NCBI RefSeq assembly: GCF_032854445.1
Contig: NC_088295.1
Span: 5,396,501 to 5,460,500 of the forward strand
DNA length: 64,000 nt
Direction of reading: 5' to 3'
Origin: Liolophura sinensis
Lineage: Eukaryota; Mollusca; Polyplacophora; Chitonida; Chitonidae
The notes beneath the pieces are model-generated. The model had not been told where the DNA came from. It saw only the letters and a program-made list of their open reading frames with translations, and did no database searches. Of this stretch, positions 4,642 to 53,690 are shown piece by piece. A program made the position numbers and the translations under genes. The first letter of the stretch is position 1. The number at the start of each line of letters is the position of its first letter.

Positions 4642-5013
4642 ATGGCGTGGACGTCTCTGTTGGTGACCTGTGTCTGTCTACTGGGCATGATCGCCTGGGG
4701 CAAGGCGCAGTACCAACCAAACTGGGAGTCCCTCGACAGCAGACCTCTGCCGGACTGGTACGACGACGCTAAGATCGGCATCTTCATCCACTGGGGTGTA
4801 TTTTCCGTGCCCAGCGTCGGTTACGGGCCATATGGCAATGTTGCGGCATGGTTTTGGCAGTACTGGAAGGGCTTTTAAAAATAAAAACTACGTGGACTTC
4901 ATGAACAATAACTATCCTCCTGGCTTCACGTATGCTGACTTCGCACCGTTATTCAAGGCCGAGCTCTTTGACCCAGATGAATGGGCCGAGTTATTGCAGG
5001 CGTCCGGAGCCAG
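4642..5013 (+). CDS. FUCA: Fucosidase exon 1
   Basis: Encodes the signal peptide and the N-terminal start of the GH29 barrel ([15 protein letters not shown]), then, after a one-base frame change at 4873-4876, KNKNYVDFM and [15 protein letters not shown]. It ends at a 'ccag|gtaatc' donor, phase 2. The Met at 4642 is preferred over the in-frame Met at 4558 because a hydrophobic leader follows directly. Confidence 0.85.
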
Positions 5014-8000
5014 GTAATCAGCCTCAGTATTTATAATGACAGACGTCTGGATTGGGATTTTATGGTCTACCATAAAGTAGTAATGTTGCGAGGTAGATCT
5101 GGCCAATTAGAAGGCAACCTGAGCCAGGCGACCAGGCCAATTAGTAATGCCAGGGACCCGGTGCCAGGCGACCAAGCCAATTAGTAATGACAGGGGCTCG
5201 GAGCCAGACTACCAGGCCAATCAGAAATGTCAGGTGCCGGGAGCCAGACGATCAGACCAATTAGTAATGACAGGGACCCGGTGCCAGACGACCAGGCCAA
5301 TCAGTAATGACAGGGACTTGGAGTTAGACGAATAGGCCGATTAGTAATGCCAGGGGCCGGGAGCCAGACGGCCAGGTCAATAAGTAATGTCAGGGGCCCG
5401 AAGTCAGATGACTAGGCCAATTAGAAATGTCAGGCGCCCGAAGTCAGATGACCAGGTAAATTGGTAATGTCAGGTGCCGGGAGCCAGACGACCAGGCCAA
5501 TTAGTAATGACAGGGGCCCGAAATCAAGTGACCAGGTCAAGTAGTAATGAAAGGGACCCGGAGTTAGACGAATAGGCCGATTAGTAATACCAGGGGCAGG
5601 GAGCCAGACGACCAGGTCTATTAGTAATGTCAGGGGGTCGGAGCCAGACGACCAGGCCAATTCGTAATGTCAGAGGCCCGGAGCCAGGTGATCAGCTTCG
5701 TTAGTCATACGGACAGGTCAATTCGTAAAGCTAGATGTCCGGAGTTAGGCAATCTAGCCAACTCATAAGATTAGTCTACATATATATATGATTATTACGT
5801 AGCGTTTTACGCCGTACTCAAGAATATTTCACTTACACCACGGCAGCAAGCATTATGGTGGGAGAAAAGCATGCAACCCGGGAAAAGCCCATGACCATCC
5901 ACAGGTTGCTGGCAAAACTTCCCACGTACGGCCAGGAAGGAAGCCAATATGCGACATGAGAGGCTCGTGGATCATTGCGCCACATTGGCCCCCACACCCA
6001 GCCTATAGTAAGAGAACTACTCATTACCATAAACAATACTGACATGTAGAGCCATGTTATACCGTTTACAGTTGTTGTTTAGCACAGGCTGTTTAGCACA
6101 GGTTGTTTAGCACAGGTTGTTTAGCACAGGCTGTTTAGCACAGGCTGTTTAGCACAGGTTGTATAGCAAAGCTTGTTTTCCCACAGCTTGTTTAGCACAA
6201 GTTGTTTTCCACAAGTTGTTTAGCACAGGTTGTTTAGCACAGGCTGTTTAGCACAGGTTGTTTAGCATAGCTTGTTTTCCACAGGTTGTTTAGCACAGGT
6301 TGTTTAGCACAGGTTGTTTATCACATGATGTTTAGCATAGGTTGTTTTGCACAGGGTCTTTAGCACAGATTGTTTAACACAGGTTGTGTAGCACAGATTG
6401 CTTAGCACATATTGTTTTGCACATGTTGTTTAACACAGATTGTTTAGCACAGATTGTTTAGCACAGGCTGTAAGTTGTTTAGCACAGGTTGTTTTGCACA
6501 GGTTGTTTAGCACAGGTTGTATATTGTTTAGTACAGGTTGATTAGCACAGGCTGTTTAGCAACGTTTGTTTAGCACAGGTTGTTTAGCACAGGTTGTTTA
6601 GCACAGATTGTTTAGAACAGGTTGTTTAGCACAGATTGTTTAGCACAGGTTGTTTCGCACAGGTAGTTTAGCACAGGCTGTTTGGCACTTGACACATGTT
6701 TAGCACAGGTTGTTTAGCACAGGTTGTTTAGTACATATTGTTTAGCACAGGTTGTTTATCACAGGTTGTTTAGCACATGTGGTTTAACACAGATTGTTTA
6801 GCACCGGTTGTTTAGCACAGGTTGTTTACATACGTACATAAGAAAGTGCATTAGTCACAATTAAAACTTCAAAAAGGTTGTACAACGTAAACCTAAAAGC
6901 CAACTGACTTGAGATGAATGACAGAAAGTACACAATAAGTCAAGTATTCAGCTCATCAGCCCAACGTGTGTGTGTTATAGTTGTGTACTTAGATGTCTCC
7001 ATGGTTTTGTAACCGTTGTATCTCAACCATGTCAGAAATGCCTTACTATCCTACATTTCACCGATAATGAACCTTATAAGATCGTGTATCCTTGTCAATA
7101 ACTATCAGTTAACCACGTGGCTCTTGGCCTACAAACTGCGGGACGGAACTGTTATTAGGCTGGGACAGACGCATCATCCACTCTAGGGCATGAGCTATAG
7201 GCTATGCCCGCAGTGTGAAAAATGCAGTGGTTATATCTACTATAAATACTTCAGTTCCTCAAAGTTGTTTTGGTTTCTTTTGGCAAATTGCTTGTATTGG
7301 GGTACACTTTGACGAAGATCGTGTCAAATATAATAGCCTTGCTTAATGGTAACTAATTAAAACGCGTTACTGATTATTTTTTCTGGTCAGAAAATAAATT
7401 GTTTGACTATACTGCTATAATTTGTCAAACTATTTATTTCTTTGATTTCCAACTCATGTCACTAAAAATAGACAATAATTCTTTATGACTAATTTTTTGT
7501 TGCCCTTTTGTTTCTTTGAATTGCCCGAGTATATACTAGTCTAGTGTAACCAAATGTTGCTTGATAAACTTTTCCTTCTTGCCATAAAATTATAAATAGC
7601 CATAACTATTTTGTGAAAATTACTTAAAATTTAAAACAGTTGAAATAAAAAAGTATTTATGTTACTAAACTATTTTTTCTTTGATATATGTGTAAAAACG
7701 ATGCGCTTAGGGGACTCGTAGTAATGTACAGTCTATATCCATCATTTTTACTCCTTTGTTTGCTGTGTACATTGTACAGAGCTGAAGCACTTGAGTGTGA
7801 AACTCTTACGTCACCGGGCTGTAGGGCTTGGGTATTTCTACGATAAAAATAAATAAAACTTTTCTGAATCAAGGAGCTCATTAAAGTGTCTCCACAAGAA
7901 AGCGTGCGACTGCTAACCGAGAGTCTCGGGTTCAGTCTGGGCCTGGGATTGGGAATCGATGCATTCCCCACTCTCATTCTGTTGTGAGACCTTTGTGAGA

Positions 8001-11000
8001 CAGCAAGTGGTCGATGGTGTTTTCCACTTGTTTCCCGACGCGATATGGCATGCATCATGTCACACGTAGACAAGTTCTTGACAAGTGGCTTGCCCATTAG
8101 GTTGATGGATTAACTCGGGAGAGGTTGACTGAAGAAAGTACCGTAAAGTGCTAAGTATATATGCATACCAAGGCCAAGGTTTTGTTTAACACTGACCCAC
8201 CACCGGCGCACAATAACTGAAATTTCTTGACTACAGCGCTGATCACCAACAAAATAAACGAAATACCGGCAAACAGTTTAAATTAGACTGATTGACATGA
8301 AAATGTGAAAGCTGCAAAATGCAAGATACAAAAATCAGTTAGATCTGACCAAGATCGCCTTTACGTGCTACACAGGCTCTTGGTTTTGATATATATTTTG
8401 TGTTCCAGAGAAGTAGGCCGTTCCGATACTTTCTTTCTGTGCATGGCAAGTACGTCGTTGTGATATCGTTTTTGTGTGCCCTGTAGGCACATCGTTCTGA
8501 TATCGTATCTGTGTGCCCGGCAAGCATGTCGTTGTGATATAGTGTTTTGTTTGTCCCGTAGGTGCGTTATTGATATTGTTTTTGTGTGCGCGGCAGGAAC
8601 GTCATTTTGATATCGTTTTGCGGCCTATAGGTAGGTCGTTCTGGTATAGTTTTTGTGTTCCCGACAGATCTATCGTTTTGATATCGTTTATGTGTTCCCG
8701 ACAGGTCCGTCGTTTTGATTTCGTTATGTGTTTCCGACAGGTACGTCGTCTTAACGTCAAAACATGCAGAAGGCTTCACGAACTGGCAATCAGAAGTGGC
8801 TTGGAACTGGAATTCGGTGGATACTGGTCCTCACAGGGACCTTGTCGGTAAGGGACATATGTAAACACAAATATCAGAGTCACTGCAATGCCAGGGTTGT
8901 TGGATTTTCCATTTCAAGCTATGGTCGTATTTATTGTCTTTCCCAAATCATTGAAAAACCCATGAAAACCCACGAAATCCATTGCGTTACATAGTTTTGA
9001 AGAAAAAGTGCTGTTGAAAGCTGACTCACAGACGTGGAATGCCCTATAGGGTCTATAACGGTGGATTATTTAACTAGACTTGATTTAAACACACATTGTA
9101 AGTGAAATGTTTTCGAGTACGGTGTAAAACACCAATCAAATAAATAAAACACATATTAAGTGTACTATGGTAGAAATGCGTTTTTTCAGCCAGTATGTAC
9201 TCCGAACTAAATAACTACGGGCATTCGGTTAACCGTACTGTTACAGCTGACCTGGCGGCGGCAGTCCGCGGTAAGACAGACGTCCACTTCGGCCTTTACC
9301 ACTGTCTGTACGAGTGGTTCCACCCTTACTACGTCCAGGACAAGAAAAATAACTTCACTACGAATGATTTTCCTAAAGTAAGTAATCTGTCTTAAAAATA
9401 TCCCAGCAATTTACTATAAACATCAGCCTAAATGAAGTAATTTAAAAGAGTGCATAAGCTCAGCAAGCTAACTTCCGACGTTTGTTCTCCTGTAGCTTTC
9501 CTGCGGGAGGTTAGTCAGACACACCTGGCAAGCTGCGGAGATTTTAGCTCAGGGCGTTAGTCAGGTATATCTGGCAAATTGAGTTCACTTTAGCTCAGGA
9601 CCTTAGGTGTACCTGTCAAACTAGGCCACTTTAGCTCAGGCCGCTAGTGAGATACCTGACAAGCTGTGGCGACATTACCTCAGGACGTTAGTCAGGTATA
9701 CCTGGCGAGCTGTGGTTACTTTAGCTCAGGACGTTAGTATTATACCTGACAAGCTGTGGTAACATTAGCTCAGGACGTTAGTCAGGTGTACCTGGCGAGC
9801 TGTGGTGACATCAGCTCAGGACGTTAGTCAGGTGTACCTGGCAATCTGTGGTGACTTAGCTCAGAAATTAAGTCAACTATATCTGACAAACTGAGGTCAC
9901 TTTAGCTCAGGACGTTAGTCAGGTGTTCCTGGCAATCTGAGGTGACTTTATCTCAGGACGTTAGTTGGGTGTACCTGGCAAGCTGTGGTAACATTAGTTC
10001 AGGACGTTAGTCAGGTATACCTTGCGAGCTGTGGTGACATCAGCTCAGGACGTTAGTCAGGTGTACCTGACAATCTGTGGTGACTTTGCTCAGCACGTTA
10101 GTCAGGTATACCTGGCAATCTGTGGTGACTTCTGCTCGGAACGTTAGTCAGGTATACCTGGCAATCTGTGTTGACATTAGCCCAGGACGTTAGTCAGGTA
10201 TACCTGGCAATCTGTGGTGACATTAGCTCAGGGCGTTAGTCAGGTGTATCTGACAATCTGTGGTGACATTAGCTCAGGGCGCTGGTCAGGTGTACCTGAC
10301 AATTTGTGGTGACTTTAGCTCAGGATGTTAGTCAGGTGTATCCGGCAATCTGTGGTGACTTTGCTCGGAACGTTAGTCAGGTATACCTGGCAATCTGTGG
10401 TGACTTCAGCTCGGGACATTAGTCAGGTATACCTGGCAATCTGTGGTGACTTTAGCTCAGGACGTTAGTCGGGTATACCTCGCGAGCTGCGATGACTTTA
10501 GTTCAGGAGGCTAGTGAAGTGTAAAAGCCAACCTGGCCAGTGGCGGGGAGTTATTTCAAACTCCACCACAAACCTATGTCGTCGTATGTATTAAACTGTG
10601 TTGGATTCTCCCTATTTCAGACAAAGGCGATGCCAGAGCTGTATGAAATCGTGAAAGCGTACAAGCCGGATCTGATCTTCTCGGATGGGGACTGGGAGGC
10701 TCCGGACACTTACTGGAACTCAACAAACTTCTTGGCCTGGCTCTACAATGAGAGGTATGCAACGAATTCTTAAACGAGATGAGCATAACGACAGAGACAA
10801 GCGGCTATCACAAACAAATGACCATGTGTCCTTGATACATTTACACTAGTTTTCAGCGCGATATTAGATGGACCACTGTAAGCCCAGAGAAGCCTCTAAT
10901 TGGTATCTAAGCCGTGGGTTCTTCCTGAAGACGTCTATACCTTGGCCTATGAGGTTGCATGTTCAAATCCAGCTTCCGCTGATCCGCCAGTGATTTTGTG

Positions 11001-14833: not shown

Positions 14834-16568
14834 TCTTTCAACGTTAGATTTAACGTATCAGTCAAGGCTTTATTTCTTACAACTTTAATATATTCTGTCA
14901 GGGATTTCCGCTCATAGTCTGCATTTCTTTCTAGGGTTAGTCATGAAGTTAGCCTAGACATATTAAATCATTTCGAATAAAATTATATGAATATACCATT
15001 CACATATTTTATTGTGTCAAAATCACTGTTAAATAAAGTTTCTGTGTTCTGTATTGCTATTATTTGCTTCTCATTACACCTTTTACGAGAGGTTTGTTTG
15101 AATTTCCTTCAACATTGAGTTTAAATTTCAGACTCACTGCATAATATTACTGTAAAATGTATACGTACGGCTCTCTACCAGATATGTCAATGAAACATAG
15201 GACTGGTCGATTCAGACAGGAATACACCATAATCAATGGCGCACAACTTCTCTGGGTTTTAGTGAAAATTTTCATCTTCGACTTCAAAAGCTGTAGAGCA
15301 TCAAAACCCCACATGATATTTGAGAATTAGCAGCTTACTGCAAATAAAAAGTCTCTTGTTAAATCCGTTACCTGGTTGATGACAGATTGCAGTTACGTCG
15401 AATTAACGGATTAATTCATTCCCCGTTGTGGATTAAATGATTATCGGGAACGGATTCATTTGTTATTGGGTAGGGATCAATCCATTAAATCGATGGAAAT
15501 GCAATCCGTCATCCCCCAGGAAACAGATTAAACGAAATATTTCTTTGAGGGCTACCAAATGGACAGAAATATTAGTATACGTGTATGGTGCTGACAATTG
15601 CTATCACCAAAGTGAACGTTCTTGCGAGGACGGCCCTCCACATTACATGCACTAACCCAGAGCTACCCAACTTTGTCTCTGGAAGCTACGCAGTGAGCAC
15701 TGCGAGCCCTAGTATTCCCGGAGAATCTCTTTGGAACTATACCAGTATAGCGAATCTTGAAAATCACCAGGGATTAGAATGGGCTATAGGTCAATGTGGG
15801 TTTGTTTGACAAATCACCAGACATCTTCAAATACACATGTAACTTCCACTAAAATCATGTCAATAAACTTTGAAAAGGTTGTATGTTAAATTAAAAATGC
15901 CTTGAGATATCGCAGTCTGACCTACTTCTGATTTATTCCTGTATAATTGTGGGGAAGACACTCATTTAAACGTTGTAAATGTGAATGTTAATCTTTAAGG
16001 AGTCGGACAATCTGTTAGATGCATCACGTTTGGTGGGCGAGTTAGCAGTTTTCATGTTAGAGCGAATAGGCTGGGAATCAGCGCGTGGTGAAATAGACCT
16101 GATGTTATGGCCATGGTTTAAGTTACACAAGCGCATTAATTTTTCTTACTATTTATCTAGTAAATTTGTCAACTTCAACATCCAAGATATATATGCCCTA
16201 ACTTTCGCGTGGTACAATGCCATACCACCATACTTTTCTTTACAACATATCAAAATATCAACCGAGCATGACTTCCCTGATTTGAACTGTGGCTGCTGGA
16301 CGTGAAGTCATAGCATTTTGTTACCTTAGTAACCTCCAGGTAGGTAGGAAGTAACACTGGCAAAAATGTCCTCAGCTCTTTCCAAAACAGACAAAATTCT
16401 GATATATTTTAACTAGATGTAAAGTGGCAGTGGAGAAATTTACAGTGCATCAACAACCTAAAAATGTCCCTATGGCAGTATTATCCAGTCAGTGCTCCTT
16501 CACTCTTCAGTTCGGAGGCAAATCCTGCACCTATGCACCCATCGAATTTTTGGATATTTGTAAAAGGC
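14834..16568. other. Intergenic region between the two fucosidase copies
   Basis: AT-rich unique sequence. Frames at 15437-15809 and 15985-16305 show no recognisable domain. 'aataaa' strings near 14977 and 15033 could serve as poly(A) signals for the first copy, but I cannot confirm them. Confidence 0.5.
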
Positions 16569-17369: not shown

Positions 17370-17560
17370 GAACTCGAACACCGGTCTTGTCGGTAAAAGA
17401 CGCAATAGTCACCGATTCTCACAGCGACCTTGTCGGTAGGGAATACCACTAACATCGTTCCTCATAGGGTCCTTGTCCGTAAGGGACACCAATAGTCACC
17501 AGTCCTCATTGTGACTTTGTCGGTAAGGAGTTCAACCGTCACCTGTCCTCACACCCGGCA
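17370..17560. repeat. Repeated exon 2 donor in the fucosidase pseudogene
   Basis: The exon 2 end plus donor (intact copy: 'cagggaccttgtcggtaagg') occurs four times with drift: near 17385 ('ggtcttgtcggtaaaa'), 17420 ('cgaccttgtcggtagg'), 17470 ('ggtccttgtccgtaagg') and 17517 ('gactttgtcggtaagg'). Spacing is about 40-55 bp. The intact first copy does not show this repeat. Confidence 0.85.
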
Positions 17561-18289: not shown

Positions 18290-18380
18290 CGAGAAGTACA
18301 ATCGGAAAAGGAACAGAAAAGGGGGCAGAAAAGGAAACGGAACAGAAAAGGAAACGGAATGGAAAAGGAAACTCAACACA
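18290..18380. repeat. Purine-rich short repeat
   Basis: Degenerate repetition of 'ggaaacggaacagaaaa' in the remnant of the pseudogene, where exons 5-7 would be expected. Confidence 0.7.
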
Positions 18381-18778: not shown

Positions 18779-18811
18779 GCGTGCTAACCCCATCGGCCAC
18801 GGAGGCCCCTT
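18779..18811 (-). mobile_element. SINE head fragment (family S)
   Basis: 'gctaaccccatcggccacgg' followed by 'aggcccc' matches the tRNA-derived head of the common SINE on the minus strand; the remainder is missing. Confidence 0.6.
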
Positions 18812-24190: not shown

Positions 24191-24245
24191 AATGCTTACA
24201 TTTCCCCATAACTCTGACACATTCACCCTGTTTTCTATCAGTCAG

Positions 24246-45300: not shown

Positions 45301-48300
45301 CATTTATACCTAGTGGCCAGTAGAAAGCTATCATTTATACCTAGTGGCCAGCAGAAAGCTATCAATTATACCTAGTGGCCAGTAGAAAGTTATCAATTAT
45401 ACCTAGTGGCCAGCAGAAAGCTACCAATTATACCTAGTGGCCAGTAGAAAAGCTACCAATTATACCTAGTGGCCAGTAGAAAGCTACCATTTATACCTAG
45501 TGGCCAGCAGAAAGCTATCAATTATACCTAGTGGCCAGTAGAAAGTTATCAATTATACCTAGTGGCCAGCAGAAAGCTACCAATTATACCTAGTGGCCAG
45601 TAGAAAGCTACCAATTATACCTAGTGGCCAGTAGAAAGCTATCATTTATACCTCGTTGCCAACAGAAAGCTACCATTTATACCTAGTGGCCAGCAGAAAG
45701 CTATCATTTATACCTAGTGGCCAGCACAAAGCTATCATTTATACCTAGTGGCCAGCAGAAAGCTACCAATTATACTTAGTGGCCAGCAGAAAGCTATCAA
45801 TTATACCTAGTGGCCAGTAGAAAGCTACCAATTATACCTAGTGGCCAACACAAAGTTATCACTTATACCTAGTGGCCAGCAGAAAGCTACCATTTATGCC
45901 TGGTGGCCAGCAGAAAGCTACCATTCATACATAGTGGCCAGCACTAAGCTATCAATTATACCTAGTGGCCAGCAGAAAGCTATCAATTATACCTAGTGGC
46001 CAGCACAAAGCTATCATTTATACCTAGTGGCCAGCAGAAAGCTATCAATTATACCTAGTGGCCAACACAAAGCTATCAATTATACCTAGTGGCCAGCAGA
46101 AAGCTATCAATTATACCTAGTGGCCAGCAGAAAGCTATCAATTATACCTAGTGGCCAGCAGAAAGCTACCAATTATACCTAGTGGCCAGCACAAAGCTAT
46201 CATTTATACCTAGTGGGCCAGCAGAAAGCTATCAATTATACCTAGTGGCCAGCACAAAGCTATCATTTATACCTAGTGGCCAGCAGAAAGCTATCAATTA
46301 TACCTAGTGGCCAGTAGAAAGCTATCAATTATACCTAGTGGCCAGCAGAAAGCTATCAATTATACCTAGTGGCCAGCAGAAAGCTATCAATTATACCTAG
46401 TGGCCAGCACAAAGCTATCAATTATACCTAGTGGCCAGCAGAAAGCTATCAATTATACCTAGTGGCCAGCAGAAAGCTACCAATTATACCTAGTGGCCAG
46501 CAGAAAGCTATCAATTATACCTAGTGGCCAGCACAAAGCTACCATTCATACCTAGTGGCCAGCAGAAAGCTATCAATTATACCTCGTGGCCAGCAGAAAG
46601 CTATCATTTATACCTAGTGGCCAGCAGAAAGTTATCAATTATACCTAGTGGCCAGCAGAAAGCTACCAATTATACCTAGTGGCCAGTAGAAAGCTACCAT
46701 TTATACCTAGTGGCCAGCAGAAAGTTATCAATTATACCTAGTGGCCAGCAGAAAGCTACCAATTATACCTAGTGGCCAGCAGAAAGTTATCAATTATACC
46801 TAGTGGCCAGCAGAAAGCTACCAATTATACCTAGTGGCCAGCACAAAGCTATCATTTATACCTAGTGGCCAGCAGAAAGCTATCAATTATACCTAGTGGC
46901 CAACACAAAGCTATCAATTATACCTAGTGGCCAGCACAAAGCTATCATTTATACCTAGTGGCCAGCAGAAAGCTATCAATTATACCTAGTGGCCAGTAGA
47001 AAGCTATCAATTATACCTCGTGGCCAGCAGAAAGCTATCAATTATACCTAGTGGCCAGCAGAAAGCTATCATTTATACCTAGTGGCCAGCAGAAAGCTAT
47101 CAATTATACCTAGTGGCCAGCAGAAAGCTATCAATTATACCTAGTGGCCAGTAGAAAGCTATCATTTATACCTAGTGGCCAGTAGAAAGCTACCATTTAT
47201 ACCTAGTGGCCAGCAGAAAGCTACCAATTATACCTAGTGGCCAGCAGAAAGCTATCAATTATACCTAAGTGGCCAGCACAAAGCTACCATTCATACCTAG
47301 TGGCCAGCAGAAAGCTATCAATTATACCTCGTGGCCAGCAGAAAGTTATCAATTATACCTAGTGGCTAGTAGAAAGCTACCAATTATACCTAGTGGCCAG
47401 TAGAAAGTTATCAATTATACCTAGTGGCCAGTAGAAAGCTACCATTTATACCTAGTGGCCAGTAGAAAGCTATCATTTATACCTAGTGGCCAGCAGAAAG
47501 CTACCATTCATACCTAGTGGCCAGCAGAAAGCTACCATTCATACATAGTGGCCAGCACAAAGCTATCATTTATACCTAGTGGCCAGCAGAAAGCTATCAT
47601 TTATACCTAGTGGCCAGCAGAAAGCTATCAATTATACCTAGTGGCCAGTAGAAAGTTATCAATTATACCTAGTGGCCAGTAGAAAGTTATCAATTATACC
47701 TAGTGGCCAGTAGAAAGCTACCATTTATACCTAGTGGCCAGCAGAAAGCTATCATTTATACCTAGTGGCCAGCAGAAAGCTATCATTTATACCTAGTGGC
47801 CAGCAGAAAGCTATCAATTATACCTAGTGGCCAGCAGAAAGCTATCAATTATACCTAGTGGCCAGCAGAAAGCTATCAATTATACCTAGTGGCCAGTAGA
47901 AAGCTACCATTTATACCTAGTGGCCAGCAGAAAGCTATCATTTATACCTAGTGGCCAGCAGAAAGCTATCAATTATACCTAGTGGCCAGCAGAAAGCTAT
48001 CAATTATACCTAGTGGCCAGTAGAAAGCTACCATTTATACCTAGTGGCCAGCAGAAAGCTATCATTTATACCTAGTGGCCAGCAGAAAGCTATCAATTAT
48101 ACCTAGTGGCCAGCAGAAAGTTATCAATTATACCTAGTGGCCAGTAGAAAGCTACCATTTATACCTAGTGGCCAGCAGAAAGCTACCATTTATACCTAGT
48201 GGCCAGCAGAAAGCTACCATTTATACCTAGTGGCCAGTAGAAAGCTACCATTTATACCTAGTGGCCAGCAGAAAGCTATCAATTATACCTAGTGGCCAGC

Positions 48301-51300
48301 AGAAAGTTATCAATTATACCTAGTGGCCAGTAGAAAGCTACCATTTATACCTAGTGGCCAGCAGAAAGCTACCAATTATACCTAGTGGCCAGTAGAAAGC
48401 TACCATTTATACCTAGTGGCCAGTAGAAAGCTATCATTTATACCTAGTGGCCAGCAGAAAGCTATAAATTATACCTCGTGGCCAGCAGAAAGTTATCAAT
48501 TATACCTAGTGGCCAGTAGAAAGCTACCATTTATACCTAGTGGCCAGCAGAAAGCTACCAATTATACCTAGTTGCCAGCAGAAAGCTACCATTTATACAT
48601 AGTGGCCAGCAGAAAGCTATCATTTATACCTAGTGGCCAGCAGAAAGCTATCAATTATACCTAGTGGCCAGCAGAAAGTTATCAATTATACCTAGTGGCC
48701 AGCAGAAAGCTATCATTTATACCTAGTGGCCAGCAGAAAGCTACCAATTATACCTAGTTGCCAGCAGAAAGCTACCATTCATACATAGTGGCCAGCAGAA
48801 AGCTATCAATTATACCTCGTGGCCAGCAGAAAGCTATCAATTATACCTAGTGGCCAGCAGAAAGCTATCATTAACTAGTGGCCAGCACAAAGTTATCATA
48901 TATATTCAGTGGCCAGCAGAAAGCTACCATTTATACCTGGTGGCCAGCAGAAAGTACCATTTATATCTACTGGCCAGCAGAAAGCTATCATTCATACCTA
49001 GTGGCCAGCAGAAAGTTACCATTTATATCTACTGGCCAGCAGAAAGCTACCATTCATACCTAGTGGCCAGCAGAAATTTTCCCTCCAGCTCAAATGACCG
49101 AATGCTGGATTTTTGATGTGGAGAATTGAGTGTCTTAGTATGACCCACTCAATATATCATTCAACAACAGCACTGGTGCTTTGACCAAACAGCTTTCTCA
49201 GAAAGTAGCATGTTCCAGTGGAGGATGGTCGGTAGCACAGCTACACACTGAGCCAGTGGAGGATGGTCGGTAGCACAGCTCCACACTGAGCCAGTGGTAG
49301 CTGGTCGGTAGCACAGCTCCACACTGAGCCAGTGGAGGATGGTCAGTTGCACAGCTACACACTGAGCCAGTGGAAGCTGATCGGTAGCACAGCTCCACAC
49401 AGAGCCTGTGGAGGATGGTCGGTAGCACAGCTACACGCTGAGCCAGTGGAGGATGGTCGCTGGCACAGCTCCACACTGAGCCAGTAGAAGCTGGTTGTTA
49501 GCACAGCTACACACTGAGCCAGTGGAGGCTGGTGGGTAGCACAGCTACACACTGAGCCAGTGGAGGATGGTCAGTAGCACAGCTACACACTGATCCTGTG
49601 GAGGATGGTCGGTAGCACAGCTACACGCTGAGCCAGTGAAAGATGGTCGTTAGCACAGCTATACACTGAGCCAGTGGAGGATGGTCGGTAGCACAGCTAC
49701 ACACTAAGCCAGTGGAGGATGGTCAGTAGCACAGCTCCACATTGAGCCAGTGAAAGATGGTCGATAGCACAGCTACACACTGAGCCAGTGGAGGATGGTC
49801 GTTAGCACAGCTACACACTGAGCCAGTGAAAGATGGTCGGTAGCACAGCTACACACTGAGCCAGTGGAGGATGGTCGGTAGCACAGCTCCACACGGAGCC
49901 AGTTGAAGATGGTCGGTAGCACAGCTCCACACTGAGCCAGTGGAGGATGGTCGGCAGCACAGCTACACACTGAGCCAGTGGAGGATGGTTGTTAGCACAG
50001 CTACACACTGAGCCAGGGGAAGATGGTCGTTAGCACTGCTCCACACTGAGCCAGTGGAGGATGGTCGTTAGCACAGCTACGCACTGAGCCTGTGGAGGAT
50101 GGTCGGTAGCACAGCTACACACTGAGCCAGTGAAAGATGGTCGTTAGCACAGCTACACACTGAGCCAGTGGAGGATGGTCGTTAGCACAGCTACACACTA
50201 AGCCAGTGGAGGATGGTCAGTAGCACAGCTCCACATTGAGCCAGTGAAAGATGGTCGGTAGCACAGCTCCACACTGAGCCAGTGGAGGATGGTTGGTAGC
50301 ACAGCTACACACTGAGCCAGTGGAGGATGGATGGTAGCACAGCTACACACTGAGCCAGTGGAGGATGGTCGGTAGCACAGCTACACACTGAGCCAGTTGA
50401 AGATGGTCGGTAGCACAGCTCCACACTGAGCCAGTGGAAGCTGGTCGGTAGCACAGCTACACACTGAGCCAGTGAAAGATGGTCGGTAGCACAGCTCCAC
50501 ACTGAGCCAGTCGAGGATGGTTGGTAGCACAGCTACACACTGAGCCAGTCGAGGATGGTCAGTAGCACAGCTACACACTGATCCCGTTTTATTTCAGTCA
50601 GCGGAATATACTCACCTGAGCCCAGCTATCGGAGCAGGTATAGCGACGGTAACGAACCCACTTTCGCCGACGCACATAAGTTTTCCATGTCTGTTCTGCA
50701 GAGAATTTAGACAACCAGTTGACAGCATACTGCCATCCCTGGAGCAGAAAGCAAAGATATCACCTGTCTTAATAGCCACATGACCAACCATTCCTGTATT
50801 TAATTAGCTGATTCTGCCCAGCAGTGGCTGGTAACGCAGTATTGAATTATGGGAAGCCATACCTATACGGAATCAAATCCCAATACCCACCCAAACATAC
50901 AGCTGCTGGAGGATGCCATATTTAATGTTTGATATTTATTATTAGTGTGTTTGAATAACACACATCAGTTCTGTAATCAAAAGAACAGGTTAAAGTAATC
51001 ACTACTTGCAAATTAAGGTCCGAACATATGTAATATCAGAAATGATCATAGCTTTCCTTCCAGAGGCCTCACTTACAGAGGTGCCACAAAAAGTGTCACT
51101 TACAGAGGTGCCACAGAAGGTGTCACTTATAGAAGTGCGACTTAAGGAGGTGTCACTTATAGAAGTGCAACTTAAGGAGGTGTCACTTATAGAGGTATCA
51201 CTCAGTCATCACCTACAGATGTGTCACTTATAGAGGTGTCACTTATTGTCATGTCACTTACAGAGGTGTCACTTATTGTCATGTCACTTATGGAAGTGCA

Positions 51301-53690
51301 ATGTAAGGAGCTGTCACTTATAAGGTCTCATTTATAGAGGTATCACTAAGTCATCACTTACAGATGTGTCACTTATACAGGTGTCACTTATTGTTGTGTC
51401 ACAACAGGCATCATTTATAGAGGTTTCGCTCAGAGCCATCACTTATTCAGATTTCATTTACAGAGGCGTCACTTATAGAGGTGCCACAGAAGGGGTCACT
51501 TATAAAAGTGTTGCTTTCATATGGAGGAGTCTTGCACAGCCCCCATTTATACAGGTACCACTTATAAGACCACCACTAACAATACAGCATTATCACTTCG
51601 TTATGGAGAAACCACTTACAGATCCACAATTTTCTAGTAGCATCACTTCTACCTGAACCACTTGTACTGGCACCACTTGTACAGGAACCACCTTGTACAG
51701 GAACCACCTTGTACCGGGACCACTTGTACTGGGTCCACTTGTACAGGTACCACCTTGTACAGGCACCACATTGTACAGGCACCACCTTGTACTGGCACCA
51801 CTTGTACAGGCACCACTTGTACTGGCACCATTTGTACACGCACCACTTGTACAGGCACCACTTGTACTGGCACCATTTGTACACGCATCACTTGTACAGG
51901 CACCACTTGTACAGGCACCACTTGTACTGGCACCACTTGTACTGGCACCACTTGTACACGCACCACTTGTACAGGCACCACCTTGTACTGGCACCACTTG
52001 TACAGGAACCACCTTGTACAGGAACCACCTTGTACCGGGACCACTTGTACTGGGTCCACTTGTACAGGTACCACCTTGTACAGGCACCACATTGTACAGG
52101 CACCAACTTGTATTGGCACCACTTGTACAGGCACCACTTGTACTGGCACCACTTGTACACGCACCACTTGTACAGGCTAGACTTGTACTGGGACTACTTG
52201 TACATGTAGATGTAGCAGTGTGATTGTAGTGGAGTTATCAAATACCATATTATTATCAAATAATTATTTATTGATCTGATTGCTGTATTTCTTTTTAGCT
52301 TGGGTATTTTATAGATTTATGAGGATTAATAATCTACCATAAACAGCCTACATACATCCTGATGGTAAGGCACTAAATCAACATGCACCTACATGTAGCC
52401 AGTATGTAACTATATAATCACCTTAAGTCCTATATCAAATAACCCACCTACCATCAGTCAGCAGATTAGCTATGCCTCTATAATCTACTACTCTCTATTA
52501 AAACCAACCTACCACCAGTCCACTGACTTCTCCACCCATGTTTTCATCCACCTGCCATTCCCCTTCCCATTCCCAGTTAGGACTGGGGAGTTCAAAGTTT
52601 TCCTTGGGTAGGAAGCCTTGTCCATTGACGTCACTCCAGTTTTTGCGTGCAGCTGGTATGACAGTTCTCCCAGACCAACCAATACCAGGAGTCCATCGCT
52701 ACAAAATACATCACAGAAATCAGGTGTCCATCGCTACAAAATACATCATGGGAATCAGGGGTCCATCGCTACAAAATACATAATGGAAATCAGGGGTCCA
52801 TCGCTACAAAATACATCATGGAAATCAGGGGTCCATTGCTACAAAATACATCATGGGAATCAGGGGTCCATCGCTACAAAATACATAATGGAAATCAGGG
52901 GTCCATCGCTACAAAATACATCATGCAAATCAGGGGTCCATTGCTACAAAATACATCATGGGAATCAGGGGTCCATTGCTACAAAATACATCATGGAAAT
53001 CAGGGGTCCATTGCTACAAAATACATCATGGAAATCAGGGGTCCATTGCTACAAAATACATCATGGAAATCAGGGGTCCATTGCTACAAAATACATCATG
53101 GAAATCAGGGGTCCATTGCTACAAAATACATCATGGAAATCAACAGTTAGGAAAAGTTAAAATGTGAATGTGCAGAATTTATTTTCAGCAAATTATCAGC
53201 AAATTAAGCATCGGTACAGTAACCATACTCTTTAAAATTACACTGTACAGGTCAAATGACATGTGTACAGAATCCAAAATTTCTAAGAGTGAATAGCAAA
53301 TAAAGTTCAAGACATTAAGTAGTCAGGGCTTCAAGTTACAGCTTTAGAAGTCCTATTGTATGTTAATTTCATACAAAAGTGCGTCATCATTTATTACACA
53401 AGCATTTACAAGATGTCGCAGCTGATGCCATGAAAATGACAGGAATCATTTGGGAATACCTCATTCTCATAGGTGACTTCCTGCACTCGCACTGGGATAT
53501 CTGAGGAAGGGACGTACACGTAGAGGCGGTGGTCACTGCCTAGGGCCCAGGTGCTCTGGGGAAGGGCCGATACCCGCTTAAACTCTCTCCCTACCCCGTG
53601 CCCTGTCACATGCTGAAGGTGCCTGGAGTGTGGTGACAAAGTGAACACTTTGCCCTCGCTATTAAGCAGCCAGAGTTTGGAGTCAGACAT
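24246..53690 (-). CDS. TECPR1: TECPR1, tectonin beta-propeller repeat protein 1 (22 exons)
   Basis: Complete gene for the autophagy/lysosome-damage factor that binds ATG5-ATG12 and membrane lipids and promotes LC3 lipidation or autophagosome-lysosome fusion (family knowledge). Twenty-two exons, all GT-AG with matching phases, add up to 3885 nt, 1294 aa; human TECPR1 is about 1165 aa. Order: first tectonin repeat (aa 1-65), split DysF module (YENE|RW, PSPNWEWEGEWQVDENMGG, TYVRRRKWVRYRRY), tectonin repeats to ~aa 385, a long low-complexity linker (~390-700) with a hexapeptide repeat, a PH-like domain (~740-865), tectonin repeats, a second DysF module (YENQKW, SSSWQWISDWAVDF, RRRRWIRRCRLVTSGPW) and C-terminal tectonin repeats. 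The extra length lies mostly in the linker. The upstream 5' UTR exon piece ends at an acceptor near 53746. BRI3 is divergent upstream. Many introns hold arrays copied from their own splice junctions. Confidence 0.95.
24468..24587 (-). CDS. TECPR1: TECPR1 exon 21
   Basis: Residues 1237-1276: VWVVRDNMVAKRVSEEGVLS, RRLGVSTECPLGTGWEDGIG, last full tectonin repeat. Acceptor 'ttccag|gtgtgg', donor 'attggg|gtaagc'. Confidence 0.94.
24700..24800 (-). mobile_element. SINE head fragment, second family (TECPR1 intron 20)
   Basis: On the minus strand 'ccaatgaggttgcgagatc' and 'aaatccagctc' resemble the B-box side of the element at 10890-11145. Fragmentary. Confidence 0.4.
25260..25366 (-). CDS. TECPR1: TECPR1 exon 20
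   Basis: Residues 1201-1236: NLWRRKNTSAIFPEGTEWEL, VSRQIRYVSAGQDGQ, tectonin repeat. Acceptor 'gttgtag|ataacc', donor 'ggacag|gtgagt'. Confidence 0.94.
25500..25670. repeat. ~100-bp tandem duplication (TECPR1 intron 19)
   Basis: 'gctgactaacataatccagt' with 'aatggaaatcaccgaaa' and 'catcataagcc' occurs twice, about 98 bases apart. The rest of the intron, 25367-26212, is unique. Confidence 0.88.
26213..26311 (-). CDS. TECPR1: TECPR1 exon 19
   Basis: Residues 1168-1201: KVWLQVVPSPPDGAPLRQVS, VGDNSVWAVDSN, tectonin repeat. Acceptor 'atacag|gcaagg', donor 'caata|gtaagt', phase 1 out. Confidence 0.93.
26735..27185. repeat. ~66-bp array copied from TECPR1 exon 18 donor
   Basis: Six to seven units, the first being the end of exon 18. 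On the minus strand each runs 'tgtggttcaggagtggagtg', then 'tc(c/t)(a/t)cagatct' variants, then 'acag|gtaagcac' and 'ggtacagacaggtgtgga'. Several keep a perfect CAG|GTAAG donor. Confidence 0.94.
27134..27441 (-). CDS. TECPR1: TECPR1 exon 18
   Basis: Residues 1065-1168: RCRLVTSGPWLPVGPLPVID, AIWAVGANGDALCRVGVTPS, WFHVPADQPFLAISIGGNSW, VWGIARDGSVWFRSGVSTDL, two tectonin repeats. RLVTSGPW closes the DysF module. Acceptor 'ctgtag|gagatg', donor 'ctacag|gtaagc', phase 1 out. Confidence 0.96.
27924..27986 (-). CDS. TECPR1: TECPR1 exon 17 (DysF end)
   Basis: Residues 1044-1065: TQEFHGQPGWRDSYRRRRWI. RRRRWIR is the basic end of the second DysF module. Acceptor 'cccag|gaccc', donor 'atcag|gtaaat', phase 2 out. 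A small 12-bp repeat ('ctaccggcac') sits at 27655-27720 in intron 17. Confidence 0.93.
28100..30240. repeat. 31-bp array with nested SINE (TECPR1 intron 16)
   Basis: About sixty copies of 'ctacagtgtgtaacatcagg' plus 'taatactggag'. An almost homogeneous block lies at 28160-28600, with more diverged units on both sides. Array units resume after the SINE at 29976-30175, up to about 30240. Confidence 0.95.
29976..30175 (-). mobile_element. SINE (family S) inserted in the 31-bp array
   Basis: Tail '(attt)n gattggtg', 'ttacgccgtactcaagg', 'catgaccatgcgtaggctgc' and B-box side 'gagctggacttgaactca'. The tRNA-like 5' end is missing. Array units lie on both sides, so the array existed first. Confidence 0.9.
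30396..30472 (-). CDS. TECPR1: TECPR1 exon 16 (DysF)
   Basis: Residues 1019-1044: ISDWAVDFSVAGGVDVDGWQ, YTSFP. Acceptor 'ttgtag|ataagt', donor 'ccccag|gtatag', phase 2 out. Confidence 0.93.
30565..30661 (-). CDS. TECPR1: TECPR1 exon 15 (DysF)
   Basis: Residues 986-1018: YLLANKYAWTDETGRKPLTQ, QSIPTPSSSWQW. Matches the DysF pattern WSD...P...W.W. Acceptor 'ggacag|gtatct', donor 'cagtgg|gtaagc', phase 0 out. Confidence 0.94.
30600..31270. repeat. ~64-bp array copied from TECPR1 exon 15 acceptor
   Basis: About nine units. On the minus strand each has 'gattacctgtatttctggag' then 'ag' and a start such as 'ttatctgttggcttggc' or 'gtacttgtcggcttggc'. The real acceptor reads 'ctatttctggacag|gtatctcttggctaac'. 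Units near the exon keep the exon-like start; distal ones drift. Confidence 0.9.
31285..31470. repeat. ~25-bp array (TECPR1 intron 14)
   Basis: Six to seven copies of 'gtgtgtggacaatgtgtagt' with 'cagtt', directly left of the exon 14 donor. Confidence 0.9.
31493..31595 (-). CDS. TECPR1: TECPR1 exon 14 (second DysF start)
   Basis: Residues 952-986: ISGVNSAVYPQTDTRQMCIY, ENQKWHLLTGFSS. YENQKW opens the second DysF module. Acceptor 'gctgcag|gtattt', donor 'ctccag|gtgagt', phase 2 out. Confidence 0.95.
31720..31847 (-). CDS. TECPR1: TECPR1 exon 13
   Basis: Residues 909-952: YWQQVGGHMLMVKTNTEGIT, WAISHDHTAYVYTGGYGGGI, FK. The YTGGYGGG motif is diagnostic for TECPR1. Acceptor 'ctacag|gtactg', donor 'aaag|gtaacc', phase 1 out. 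Confidence 0.96.
31860..32385. repeat. ~22-bp array (TECPR1 intron 12)
   Basis: About twenty-three copies of 'ccattccacaaccagtccacta' and variants with 'aagcagtccc'. No match to the flanking exons. Confidence 0.94.
32540..32850. repeat. Tandem copies of TECPR1 exon 12 donor junction
   Basis: About five diverged ~45-50-bp units downstream of exon 12. On the minus strand the real junction is 'aaacacatggctcaaag|gtatgt'. Copies read 'aaacacatatctaaaag|gtac' and 'caacacctgagtgaaag|gtatg', each followed by 'tctggttgtgtt' and 'acacatgct'. Confidence 0.9.
32802..32941 (-). CDS. TECPR1: TECPR1 exon 12
   Basis: Residues 863-909: VATLSMACSSLQGVAQAPDS, SICWAVTDRGDVFMHLPTSQ, PKHMAQ, tectonin repeat. Acceptor 'gttgtag|gtggcc', donor 'tcaaag|gtatgt', phase 2 out. 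Confidence 0.94.
33199..33354 (-). CDS. TECPR1: TECPR1 exon 11 (PH-like domain)
   Basis: Residues 811-862: HVQLSLADIVCVPRITISNY, KAAFAIFLSDAVKSKEKPYI, LSAVSEKETDDW, with the C-terminal helix Trp of PH domains. Acceptor 'tttttcag|catgtg', donor 'gattgg|gtaatg'. Confidence 0.94.
33570..34200. repeat. Tandem copies of TECPR1 exon 10 3' end plus donor
   Basis: Five units of about 100-115 bp, the first being the last ~87 bases of exon 10 itself. On the minus strand each runs from 'gtgagct(a/g)' through 'tctacacttcaca' and 'ggaaaacaaatg|gtactg' to 'ttagtattgtgtattt'. The intronic copies keep the donor but have drifted inside the exon-like part. Confidence 0.93.
34109..34267 (-). CDS. TECPR1: TECPR1 exon 10 (PH-like domain)
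   Basis: Residues 758-810: TVWVKRGHLQIRLRCRRGND, WASCELELEQGLRRHNSQSG, LLFLHFTQQGKQM. VWVK is shared with vertebrate TECPR1. Acceptor 'gtttcag|acagtg', donor 'caaatg|gtactg' (weak at +4/+5). Confidence 0.92.
34672..34793 (-). CDS. TECPR1: TECPR1 exon 9
   Basis: Residues 717-757: IADTEAPPIDQSLRNKLLQE, LRWRNEMLELFQGYEEAVEK, a helical stretch before the PH-like domain. Acceptor 'attacag|acatcg', donor 'gagaag|gtaggt'. Confidence 0.92.
34925..35695. repeat. 59-bp array (TECPR1 intron 8)
   Basis: About thirteen copies of a ~59-bp unit ('agatttggtagcaaggctac', 'aaggagactgcctgtaggag', 'acacatgaatgcagaactt'). On the minus strand each unit has 'tgtgtctcctacag|gc', a good-looking acceptor, but it does not match exon 9's own acceptor. 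Confidence 0.95.
35700..36340. other. TECPR1 intron 8, unique part
   Basis: Unique intron sequence between an array and a SINE; nothing else seen. Sequence 36646-37050 after the SINE is likewise unremarkable. Confidence 0.6.
36355..36631 (-). mobile_element. Full-length tRNA-derived SINE (family S) with target-site duplication
   Basis: Reference copy for this window. On the minus strand it starts with the tRNA-like head 'ggggcctccgtggctcagtc', with B box 'gtgagttcaagtccagc'. It continues 'ccggccgtaagtgggatgg' and 'ccataatgctggccgccg' and ends 'gtaaaacaccaatc' plus a 26-base A run. The 14-base repeat 'gaatccataatgga' at 36341-36354 and 36632-36645 is a perfect target-site duplication, so the copy is young. 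Confidence 0.97.
37051..38149 (-). CDS. TECPR1: TECPR1 exon 8 (linker exon)
   Basis: Residues 351-717. Starts VLGIGLDDTAVYIRSSITPE and LLTGKTWEKLS, closing the N-terminal propeller repeats. About 300 residues of Ser/Thr/Asp/Lys/Glu-rich linker follow, with a hexapeptide repeat, ending MNWIWVSACALNIADTAS. In vertebrates the ATG5-binding region sits in the equivalent linker; I cannot align it here. Acceptor 'tgcacag|gtgtta', donor 'aatacaa|gtgagc', phase 1 out. Confidence 0.92.
37540..37715 (-). repeat. TECPR1: Coding minisatellite in TECPR1 linker, 18-bp unit
   Basis: About nine copies of a hexapeptide T-[SNT]-[SPL]-K-D-[EDQ] (TSSKDE, TNPKDE, TTLKDE and so on) in exon 8, in frame. The encoded stretch is highly charged and probably disordered. 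Confidence 0.95.
38150..38962. other. TECPR1 intron 7, unique part
   Basis: AT-rich unique intron, nothing recognisable apart from the SINE that follows. Confidence 0.6.
38963..39144 (-). mobile_element. SINE (family S), truncated, with target-site duplication
   Basis: A long T run at 38963, then 'gattggtgttttacgccgta', and an abrupt end after 'aagccagcatg'. The 12-base direct repeat 'agacattaaaga' flanks it (38951-38962 and 39145-39156). The tRNA-like head is missing, so the element was 5'-truncated on insertion. Confidence 0.95.
39535..39630 (-). CDS. TECPR1: TECPR1 exon 7
   Basis: Residues 319-350: IWFWKSQTEGLEGSWIEMVG, EMSLLSVSQNDQ. SWIEMVGEM is a hallmark of TECPR1. Acceptor 'tgagacag|atatgg', donor 'gatcaa|gtaagg'. 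Confidence 0.95.
39890..40032 (+). mobile_element. SINE 3' part, related family
   Basis: 'tggtttatcctgggcactcc', 'agttcttccacccataca', then the shared tail 'ttcttgagtatggtgtaaac' and 'aatcaaataaata'. The body differs from family S but the tail is shared. Confidence 0.6.
40090..40187 (-). CDS. TECPR1: TECPR1 exon 6
   Basis: Residues 286-318: TDWEQVPGPMGNPLLHVAAG, TQAVWALSRDGK, tectonin repeat. Acceptor 'tttatcag|gtacag' restores phase with exon 5; donor 'ggcaag|gtaagg'. An internal 'gctgcag|gtacac' is a possible second acceptor. Confidence 0.92.
40120..42545. repeat. 87-bp array copied from TECPR1 exon 6 acceptor and exon body
   Basis: About twenty-eight tandem 87-bp units with few differences. 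On the minus strand each holds the acceptor 'tgtttatcag|gtacagac', then an exon-like stretch that would read TDWVQVPGPVGNNLIHVAVG, then a TGA. The last copy is real exon 6, reading TDWEQVPGPMGNPLLHVAAG. The array fills intron 5. The open frames it creates (830 codons on the plus strand, up to 298 on the minus) are artefacts of the period. Confidence 0.96.
42813..42999 (-). CDS. TECPR1: TECPR1 exon 5
   Basis: Residues 224-286: VYVRLGVNADCPEGRTWHPI, GVTEVSVGPCGQVWLITWDG, QTLVRTDVSCETPY, a classic tectonin repeat. Acceptor 'ttcaag|gtgtat'. Donor 'tatg|gttagt' is slightly off consensus; phase 1 out. Confidence 0.93.
43218..43430 (+). mobile_element. SINE copy (family S)
   Basis: Reads 'aggcctctcaccaatgcgg', 'attcaagtccagctcatg' (B box), 'ggccgtaagtgggaagg', 'accataatgctggccgcc' and a short tail 'aaataaatag'. 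The first ~50 bases of the tRNA-like head are missing. It lies in TECPR1 intron 4, opposite to the gene. Confidence 0.9.
43510..43638 (-). CDS. TECPR1: TECPR1 exon 4
   Basis: Residues 181-223: VATLGDEMGDPAELFLDVSV, GGQDLNCQVEGQLCVWTVSI, TGQ, the first half of a tectonin repeat. Acceptor 'ttgtag|gttgcc', donor 'ggacag|gtagtc'. The upstream piece of intron 3, 43639-44170, is unique sequence. Confidence 0.93.
44170..49080. repeat. Very large 31-bp array (TECPR1 intron 3)
   Basis: Roughly 155-160 copies of a 31-bp unit ('ctagtggccagcagaaagct', 'atcaattatac'), the largest array in the window. Variants (cagcag/cagtag/cagcac, tatcaatt/taccattt) mix in recurring patterns, which suggests multi-unit duplications. 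On the minus strand each unit holds 'gctttctgctggccactag|gtata', a pyrimidine tract plus TAG|GT. Confidence 0.96.
49200..50590. repeat. 38-bp array next to TECPR1 exon 3 donor
   Basis: About thirty-six copies of a 38-bp unit ('cactgagccagtggaggatg', 'gtcggtagcacagctaca'). On the minus strand a unit reads 'actggctcagtgtgtagc', which resembles the exon 3 donor 'gctgggctcaggtgagta' 25 bases away. The likeness is weaker than for the other splice-seeded arrays. Confidence 0.95.
50616..50738 (-). CDS. TECPR1: TECPR1 exon 3 (DysF C-part)
   Basis: Residues 140-180: GWQYAVNWLSKFSAEQTWKT, YVRRRKWVRYRRYTCSDSWA, Q. The basic RRRKWVRYRRY run is the conserved end of the DysF domain. Acceptor 'tgctccag|ggatgg', donor 'gctcag|gtgagt'. 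Confidence 0.95.
51055..51540. repeat. ~17-18-bp array (TECPR1 intron 2)
   Basis: Degenerate units of 'gaggtgtcacttataga'. A later part near 51550-51640 leads into the 15-bp array. Confidence 0.88.
51655..52205. repeat. 15-bp array with higher-order duplication (TECPR1 intron 2)
   Basis: About thirty-six copies of 'caccacttgtacagg' / 'caccacttgtactgg'. A ~125-bp block at about 51680-51800 recurs almost unchanged at about 52005-52120. The 15-bp period keeps five of six frames open for over 160 codons; none is a gene. Confidence 0.95.
52513..52698 (-). CDS. TECPR1: TECPR1 exon 2 (DysF N-part)
   Basis: Residues 78-139: RWTPGIGWSGRTVIPAARKN, WSDVNGQGFLPKENFE, PSPNWEWEGEWQVDENMGGE. The Trp-rich pattern is the DysF signature. 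Acceptor 'tttgtag|cgatgg', donor 'ctggtg|gtaggt', phase 0 both sides. Confidence 0.94.
52690..53150. repeat. 35-bp array copied from the TECPR1 exon 2 acceptor
   Basis: About thirteen near-identical 35-bp units. On the minus strand each reads 'atgatgtattttgtag' then 'c(g/a)atgg' and 'acccctgatttcc'. The member next to exon 2 is the real acceptor (AG at 52699-52700) with the coding start 'cgatggactcctgg'. Every unit keeps the TTTTGTAG acceptor. Confidence 0.95.
53460..53690 (-). CDS. TECPR1: TECPR1 exon 1 (start codon)
   Basis: Residues 1-77, starting MSDSKLWLLNSEGKVFTLSP and containing FKRVSALPQSTWALGSDHRL, a tectonin repeat, ending YENE, the first half of the DysF signature. Donor 'aatgag|gtattc'. 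The 5' UTR continues to 53745, where 'cctttcag' looks like an acceptor, so an upstream non-coding exon is likely. Confidence 0.93.

What the first reader, a model, noticed from the sequence alone, without database searches (positions are those of the whole stretch)
5003..53150. Tandem arrays seeded at exon-intron junctions, recurring across two unrelated genes
At least ten arrays carry, in every unit, the splice junction of the exon next to them: fucosidase exon 1 donor, exon 2 acceptor and exon 5 donor; pseudogene exon 2 donor; TECPR1 exon 2, 6 and 15 acceptors; TECPR1 exon 10, 12 and 18 donors. The true exon edge, fixed by homology and phase, is always the outermost member. Both site types, both strands and units of ~35-110 bp are involved, so one local accident cannot explain it. 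This predicts a mechanism that amplifies AG|GT-containing segments at exon borders, for example repair of breaks at R-loops, or selection for redundant sites. It resembles the proposed origin of introns by tandem duplication of AGGT segments. I know of no description of this as a genome-wide habit.
Basis: partly seen in the sequence, partly recalled or inferred. Interest (0 to 1): 0.95.

Follow-up and report, generated by a model that had tools for sequence, protein, structure and literature searches.

The report
Splice-site mirage minisatellites in a chiton
Some introns of this chiton contain tandem repeats whose unit is a copy of the neighbouring exon edge, a known but little-studied oddity called "mirages" in lancelets; most of it is what frequent intronic repeat birth would leave behind, with a modest unexplained excess at the 5' ends of introns.

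Summary
The window is chiton DNA: the assembly (609 Mb, 632 contigs, one of exactly 96,433,062 bp) matches the published Liolophura genome (L. sinensis after correction). Of the ten named junctions, seven are repeated in the adjoining array beyond 99.9% of a matched null, the pseudogene one is visible by eye, fucosidase exon 1 donor is marginal, exon 5 donor is not supported. The same structure appears in CCT3, CCT5, CCT6 and glycogen phosphorylase: 21 of 111 intronic arrays in 31 sampled genes include a splice junction. It is already described in lancelets as "mirages", so it is a new member of a known kind, here in a mollusc. The proposed mechanism is not supported: junctions are repeated less often (8%) than intron positions 300 bp inside (30%), decoy sites are not specially conserved, the sense-strand AGGT excess vanishes without junction-like arrays, and "exon edge outermost" is forced by the protein. 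Random births in the intron, tolerated when they straddle an edge, explain acceptors (4 seen, 4.5 expected) but not donors (12 versus 4.6, P 0.002; 6 versus 1.9, P 0.01 in genes unrelated to the flagged ones). The cause of the donor excess is open.

The parts
52686..53142 (-). TECPR1 intron 1, 35-bp unit x13, repeats the exon 2 acceptor (exon 2 ends at 52698), 13 exonic bp
   Evidence: score 51; AG kept in 12 of 12 recognised units
40126..42530 (-). TECPR1 intron 5, 87-bp unit x28, repeats the exon 6 acceptor (exon 6 ends at 40187), 62 exonic bp
   Evidence: score 70; AG kept in 25 of 26 recognised units
33587..34144 (-).
   Evidence: score 68; GT kept in 4 of 5
32605..32820 (-).
   Evidence: score 38; GT kept in 3 of 6
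30717..31261 (-).
   Evidence: score 37; AG kept in 7 of 8
26727..27174 (-).
   Evidence: score 45; GT kept in 4 of 5
8453..8749 (+). Fucosidase intron 1, 37-bp unit x8, repeats the exon 2 acceptor (exon 2 starts at 8741)
   Evidence: score 43; array at the same place in paralogs fF and fE
5121..5687 (+). Fucosidase intron 1, 40-bp unit x14, weakly similar to the exon 1 donor (5013), 107 bp away
   Evidence: score 21, between 95 and 99% of the null; 6 units in paralog fE
17386..17529 (+). Fucosidase pseudogene, 43-bp unit x3.3 with variants of the exon 2 donor sequence CTTGTCG|GTAAGG
   Evidence: by eye
11670..12004 (+).
   Evidence: score 15
44188..50581 (-). TECPR1 intron 3, two large arrays (31-bp x158, 38-bp x36): probably ordinary intronic minisatellites; the second starts 34 bp from the donor
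   Evidence: donor 17, acceptor 20, the latter between 95 and 99% of the null
24468..53690 (-). TECPR1 gene (exons by spliced alignment to a recalled human TECPR1; the middle, about 36400-38000, is uncertain)
4708..14815 (+). Alpha-L-fucosidase gene; exon 1 is one base longer (306) than in its two near-identical copies (305)

Best explanation
These are mirage minisatellites. Tandem duplication of short segments (about 10-110 bp) is frequent in this chiton's introns, and the copies then expand and contract, probably by slippage or unequal exchange. A founder segment that happens to straddle an exon edge is tolerated, because the exon-proximal splice site still joins the right exons and the extra copies become intron. 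Founders wholly inside coding sequence are purged. That filter gives arrays that begin inside the exon, run into the intron, carry full copies of the splice site, and have the true edge outermost. At donors there is in addition a moderate excess of births or survival that this filter does not explain. Shown here: homology, copy-number change, inheritance through gene duplication, neutral-looking decoys, donor excess in this sample. Inferred: the duplication mechanism, tolerance by the spliceosome, purging in exons, and selection against upstream decoy acceptors.
For: Repeat coverage falls from the intron (30% at +300) through the junction (8%, the same as at +12 to +60) to about 1% inside the exon over roughly one unit length (5% at -12, 3% at -24 and -36, 1% at -48), with no peak at the junction in the pooled set (small bumps at 0 in the fucosidase and TECPR1 subsets). 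Acceptor arrays occur as often as uniform placement predicts, 4 against 4.54. Units lie closer to the junction than to each other in 11 of 15 arrays, as expected of a conserved founder (units picked by similarity to the junction). Near-identical fucosidase copies carry the same arrays with different copy numbers (22/19/20, 7/11/15, 14/14/6), and a 56-bp exon 4 donor array is shared by three older paralogs (45, 84, 42 copies). Different arrays sit at the same donor in different paralogs, e.g. exon 6 donor 64 bp in fA and 53 bp, 70 bp away, in fC, so births are repeated and local. Decoy GT/AG is neither specially kept nor lost by rank. RT-PCR suggests that lancelet mirages do not disturb splicing (PMC3087553, passages).
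Against: Donor arrays exceed uniform placement 2.6-fold, P 0.0018 (0.005 without TECPR1; 6 against 1.93, P 0.0096 in the CCT, HSP60 and holdout genes); treating donors and acceptors apart was decided. Without near-identical copies, 13 donor edges fall in the exonic 50 bp against about 2.2 per 25 bp over the first 300 intronic bp, and 15 array edges place the junction inside a founder-sized zone against 3 that just miss it (fB and fC counted twice). Strong detached arrays, not counted in these tests, would raise the excess. By mean retention, not rank, decoy GT/AG looks better kept (0.81 against 0.69, Wilcoxon P 0.007). The model needs an extra factor at donors.
Confidence: 0.66

Rival explanations
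1. A donor-directed process: breaks or slippage are concentrated at the 5' ends of introns (for example through transcription, R-loops or splicing factors on nascent RNA), so donor-straddling segments are duplicated more often. This can hold beside the best explanation.
For: Donor excess 12 against 4.56 with acceptors at expectation, and 6 against 1.93 with 0 acceptors in genes unrelated to the flagged ones; arrays somewhat denser in the 5' half of introns, 32,757 against 24,554 bp; nearest units tend to be most like the junction in 11 of 15 arrays, 3 of them with P below 0.05.
Against: No motif preference once junction-like arrays are removed; sense GC skew of units is small, 0.068 against 0.047 in the background (51 units positive, 34 negative); 16 independent arrays only; donors alone are not significant in the fucosidases (3 against 1.45, P 0.17), CCT/HSP60 (4 against 1.47, P 0.051) or holdout (2 against 0.46, P 0.07) taken singly.
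Confidence: 0.2
2. Selection for redundant splice sites or extra U1 binding sites keeps donor copies.
For: GT or AG kept in 216 of 260 units, mean 0.81 against 0.69 for other dinucleotides; donor bias.
Against: By rank the signal is not better kept than the other dinucleotides of the same segment (mean 0.44); in CCT6 only 12 of 23 units keep GT.
Confidence: 0.06
3. The donor/acceptor contrast is made by counter-selection at acceptors plus longer life of arrays anchored on a conserved exon edge, with no mutational bias.
For: Units closest to the conserved junction copy in 11 of 15; an old array (56-bp, three paralogs) is a donor mirage; upstream decoy AGs should compete with the true acceptor (established splicing knowledge, not tested); 0 acceptor arrays against 1.93 in unrelated genes (not significant).
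Against: Not tested directly; in the pooled sample acceptors are at, not below, the uniform expectation.
Confidence: 0.3
4. Assembly artefact.
For: 14x HiFi coverage (PMC11068029); the mitochondrial genome is present as a head-to-tail concatemer.
Against: Arrays at the same places in several paralogs with diverged units and different copy numbers; the largest sampled arrays (4.9 kb; 4.7 kb) are shorter than the mean read of 8,347 bp. No reads were seen.
Confidence: 0.03

Closest known systems
Mirages of amphioxus (Adh3, globins BflGb6 and BflGb9, troponin C, PGBD5)
   Same: Minisatellite-like tandem duplications spanning an exon-intron boundary, at 5' and 3' boundaries, many but not all units with AG/GT, copy-number change, true site apparently still used (PMC3087553 passages; PMC3902484 passage)
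   Different: Mollusc instead of cephalochordate; here counted over 31 genes with nulls, dated through paralogs, and biased to donors. Somatic and haplotype instability and splicing were not tested here
Intron gain by tandem genomic duplication of AGGT segments
   Same: Tandem duplication carrying AG|GT (PMC3443670 passages; PMC4974935 seen only in search listings)
   Different: No new intron: the fucosidase introns are common to all 14 modelled copies, mirages only in some
Ordinary intronic minisatellites
   Same: Overlapping unit lengths (median 29 bp without, 56 bp with a junction), instability; arrays of all kinds fill 28% of the sampled intron DNA
   Different: The founder includes an exon edge

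Membership tests
Mirage minisatellite | Tandem repeat whose unit spans an exon-intron boundary | tested here: met
   19 of 97 arrays overlap an exon by at least 5 bp (10.1 expected at random); 28 of 136 junctions above the 99% null
Mirage minisatellite | Both 5' and 3' boundaries affected | tested here: met
   11 donor, 8 acceptor of 19; 12 and 4 after removing related copies and adding the holdout
Mirage minisatellite | Many but not all units keep AG/GT | tested here: met
   216 of 260 recognisable units
Mirage minisatellite | Length instability | tested here: met
   Copy numbers differ among near-identical paralogs; haplotypes and somatic change not tested
Mirage minisatellite | Normal splicing despite decoys | not testable with these tools
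   No RNA data held
Mirage minisatellite | Found in cephalochordates | tested here: not met
   Genome is a chiton; the papers seen set no lineage requirement on the structure itself, so this is a taxon difference
AGGT tandem-duplication intron gain | Duplication creates a new intron at that place | tested here: not met
   Exon lengths 107,131,134,98,133 in the 13 fetched fucosidase genes but for one 104 in fI, and in the window's copy; mirages only in some
Motif-driven amplification of AG|GT | Excess of AGGT in arrays not related to a junction | tested here: not met
   7 against 6.1 shuffled in 51 arrays; the filter is partly circular

The most novel reading that the evidence does not exclude
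5' splice sites of this chiton are a real hot spot of minisatellite birth, 2-3 times the intron background, through a process tied to transcription or splicing at donors and not to the AGGT letters; such genomes would be a living stock of duplicated splice sites for alternative splicing and intron sliding.
Probability: 0.25. Interest if true: 0.72.

Novelty: new member of a known kind. Interest (0 to 1): 0.45.

Why it matters
In the papers seen, mirages were reported gene by gene in lancelets. Finding them in a mollusc, in several unrelated genes and with paralogs of graded age, suggests that they are not a cephalochordate quirk and gives a natural experiment on how the spliceosome picks one of dozens of near-identical donors (66 of 83 recognised units of the fB array keep GT), and on whether tandem duplication at exon edges feeds new splice sites. 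The donor excess, if it holds genome-wide, would need a new mutational or selective explanation.

Tried and rejected
Amphioxus as the source: considered because of the mirages; the GFP family gave no hit (but no control genome rang either, so this shows little), and the mitochondrial order and assembly statistics point to a chiton. AG|GT motif amplification: first looked positive (AGGT 22 against 9.2), then traced to junction-like arrays. Selection on decoys: mean retention looks high (0.81 against 0.69, Wilcoxon P 0.007), but the rank among the same segment's dinucleotides is 0.44, because some substituted founder positions drag the mean of the others down; I trust the rank more. The same array at the same junction in all paralogs: not seen. 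The spliced alignment of the pseudogene was a chimera and was not used. My first spliced models held spurious micro-exons; of the 199 introns, four of TECPR1 were dropped and two merged into one (194 left), while six low-support TECPR1 introns, the merged one and one of fI were kept. Five of 55 holdout introns were dropped for weak support. For the independent counts I dropped fE, winF, fJ, fL, fM, hspB and the exon 4 donor array of fA and fC shared with fB. Papers: searches for mirage or exon-edge minisatellites showed only the lancelet papers as clear cases, and none in molluscs, in an open-access library; searches had no mollusc term, and one search listed only 10 of 853. The founding Adh paper (PMC117041) is not held and is cited through PMC3087553.

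Full report
Source. G000 has 609,464,459 bases in 632 contigs and the window is C1:5396501-5460500. The mitochondrial genes read cox3-nad3-nad2-cox1-cox2-atp8-atp6 on one strand and nad5-nad4-nad4L-cob-nad6-nad1 on the other, with the rRNA genes presumed in the gap beyond nad1 (gene identities by reading except cox1), which I recall as the chiton and ancestral mollusc order. The published Liolophura genome has 609.5 Mb, 632 scaffolds and a longest scaffold of 96,433,062 bp (PMC11068029, passages); C1 is 96,433,062 bp. The species was later corrected from L. japonica to L. sinensis (PMC12441733, whole text).

Gene models. I wrote a spliced protein-to-DNA alignment and used recalled human proteins as references. 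TECPR1 lies on the minus strand at 24468-53690, the fucosidase on the plus strand at 4708-14815 (families by Pfam and PDB). The same program gave 13 more fucosidase genes, eight CCT subunits and HSP60, and later a holdout of seven genes chosen without looking at repeats: glycogen phosphorylase, two ALDH, two HSP90, GRP94, TRAP1. In all 31 genes, 244 introns.

Observation. Junction segments of 20+20 bp were compared with the arrays in their own intron and, as null, with arrays of other genes (fucosidases counted as one gene). 28 of 136 junctions next to an array exceed the 99% null (about 1.4 expected), 34 exceed the 95% null (about 7 expected); some are near-identical paralogs.

How common. 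TRF finds 97 arrays in the first 194 introns, of which 19 reach at least 5 bp into an exon (11 donors, 8 acceptors; 10.1 expected under uniform placement, sd 2.8): TECPR1 5, CCT3 2, CCT5 1, CCT6 1, fucosidases 10. The holdout adds 14 arrays with 2 (both phosphorylase donors, one by only 7 bp) against 1.14 expected. So 21 of 111, related copies included.

Is the junction preferred? Per position, no: a 24-mer centred on a junction is repeated in its intron in 31 of 388 cases (8%), the same as at +12 to +60 (7-8%), against 30% at +300; on the exon side 5%, 3%, 3%, 1% at -12, -24, -36, -48. In the fucosidase and TECPR1 subsets there is a small bump at 0 (12% against 8%; 18% against 13% at +12), in the CCT set none. 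This comparison is harsh, because one founder becomes many interior positions. Per founder, a uniform-placement model on collapsed introns, with one count per independent array, gives 16 of 88 arrays observed against 9.11 expected (P 0.012); donors 12 against 4.56 (P 0.0018), acceptors 4 against 4.54. Without TECPR1, which was flagged for this feature, 11 against 6.79 (P 0.064), donors 9 against 3.4 (P 0.005). With the fucosidases left out too, 40 arrays remain: 6 against 3.87 (P 0.17), donors 6 against 1.93 (P 0.0096), acceptors 0 against 1.93. Array edges show the same: after removing near-identical copies, 13 donor edges fall in the exonic 50 bp and 4 in the first 50 intronic bp. Treating donors and acceptors apart was decided, so these P values should be read with that in mind.

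Mechanism. AGGT on the sense strand looked enriched in arrays that do not overlap a junction (22 against 9.2, antisense ACCT 15 against 9.5), but the excess lies in arrays similar to their own junction; in the other 51 it is 7 against 6.1 shuffled. The filter is partly circular. Decoy units keep GT or AG in 216 of 260 cases; the mean per array is 0.81 against 0.69 for the other dinucleotides (P 0.007), but its mean rank among them is 0.44. Units are closer to the junction than to each other in 11 of 15 arrays, and similarity falls with distance in 11 of 15, in 3 of them with P below 0.05, as if the exon edge were the preserved founder. Three near-identical fucosidase copies have the same arrays with 22/19/20, 7/11/15 and 14/14/6 units; a 56-bp exon 4 donor array is shared by fA, fB and fC with 45, 84 and 42 units, detached from the exon by 1.1 kb in fA; the exon 6 donor carries different arrays in fA (64 bp) and fC (53 bp, 70 bp away), the exon 1 donor in fA (81 bp) and, marginally, in the window's group (40 bp). 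So arrays are born repeatedly, persist through gene duplication and change in length.

Why the edge is outermost. A duplicated segment that straddles a donor gives exon-GT-unit-GT-unit. Only the exon-proximal site leaves the protein unchanged, so it is the one seen as the true edge. This holds for any mechanism and is no evidence for one. The 19 attached arrays each reach less than one unit into the exon.

Known work. [quoted passage not shown] the PGBD5 paper adds its own case and names Adh and troponin C (PMC3902484, passage). Tandem genomic duplication of AGGT is an accepted route of intron gain (PMC3443670, passages). An earthworm paper reports minisatellites in metallothionein introns and a duplicated exon 4, but the passages I saw do not speak of duplicated splice sites (PMC12783039). 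A chiton comparative paper has no occurrence of 'tandem repeat', 'minisatellite' or 'simple repeat' (PMC12005716, term search). Searches with mollusc or chiton terms found no such case.

Verdict. Real, recurrent in unrelated genes, and a known kind in a new phylum. The special AG|GT mechanism is not needed for acceptors or for the shape of the arrays; a two- to threefold donor excess remains and is worth a whole-genome count.

Noticed in passing
window 4708-5013; L030, L031: The window's fucosidase exon 1 is one base longer (306) than in two near-identical upstream copies (305), and its two halves are open in different frames, so this copy may be inactive.
   Followed up: partly
G000 C1:5.25-5.41 Mb, C1:17.76 Mb, C1:30.16 Mb, C6:39.2 Mb, C8:22.4 Mb: Large expansion of alpha-L-fucosidase genes in this chiton: 98 exon matches, 18 of them near-complete exon-1 matches, in several clusters.
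   Followed up: partly
G000 C99:8348-102844: The mitochondrial genome is present as a head-to-tail concatemer of about 15.5-kb units (seven cox1 copies, another on C632), probably an assembly artefact of a circle.
   Followed up: no
L003 about 4050-4500: Long alternating microsatellite (reads MYMYMY in several frames) between mitochondrial cox3 and the presumed rRNA region.
   Followed up: no
window 5803-6042, 36351-36572, 38931-39217, 56041-56283: A dispersed repeat with a recurring open frame (like [20 protein letters not shown]) on both strands, perhaps a short mobile element.
   Followed up: no
G000 C6:26531000-26545300 (L036, L037): Two HSP90 genes, divergently oriented, nearly identical in protein, with different intron lengths.
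   Followed up: no
sampled introns (208 after removing near-identical copies): Arrays lie more in the 5' half of introns (32,757 bp) than in the 3' half (24,554 bp).
   Followed up: partly
window 40055-42547: The 87-bp array over TECPR1 exon 6 gives an 830-codon open frame on the opposite strand, an effect of a unit length divisible by three.
   Followed up: no
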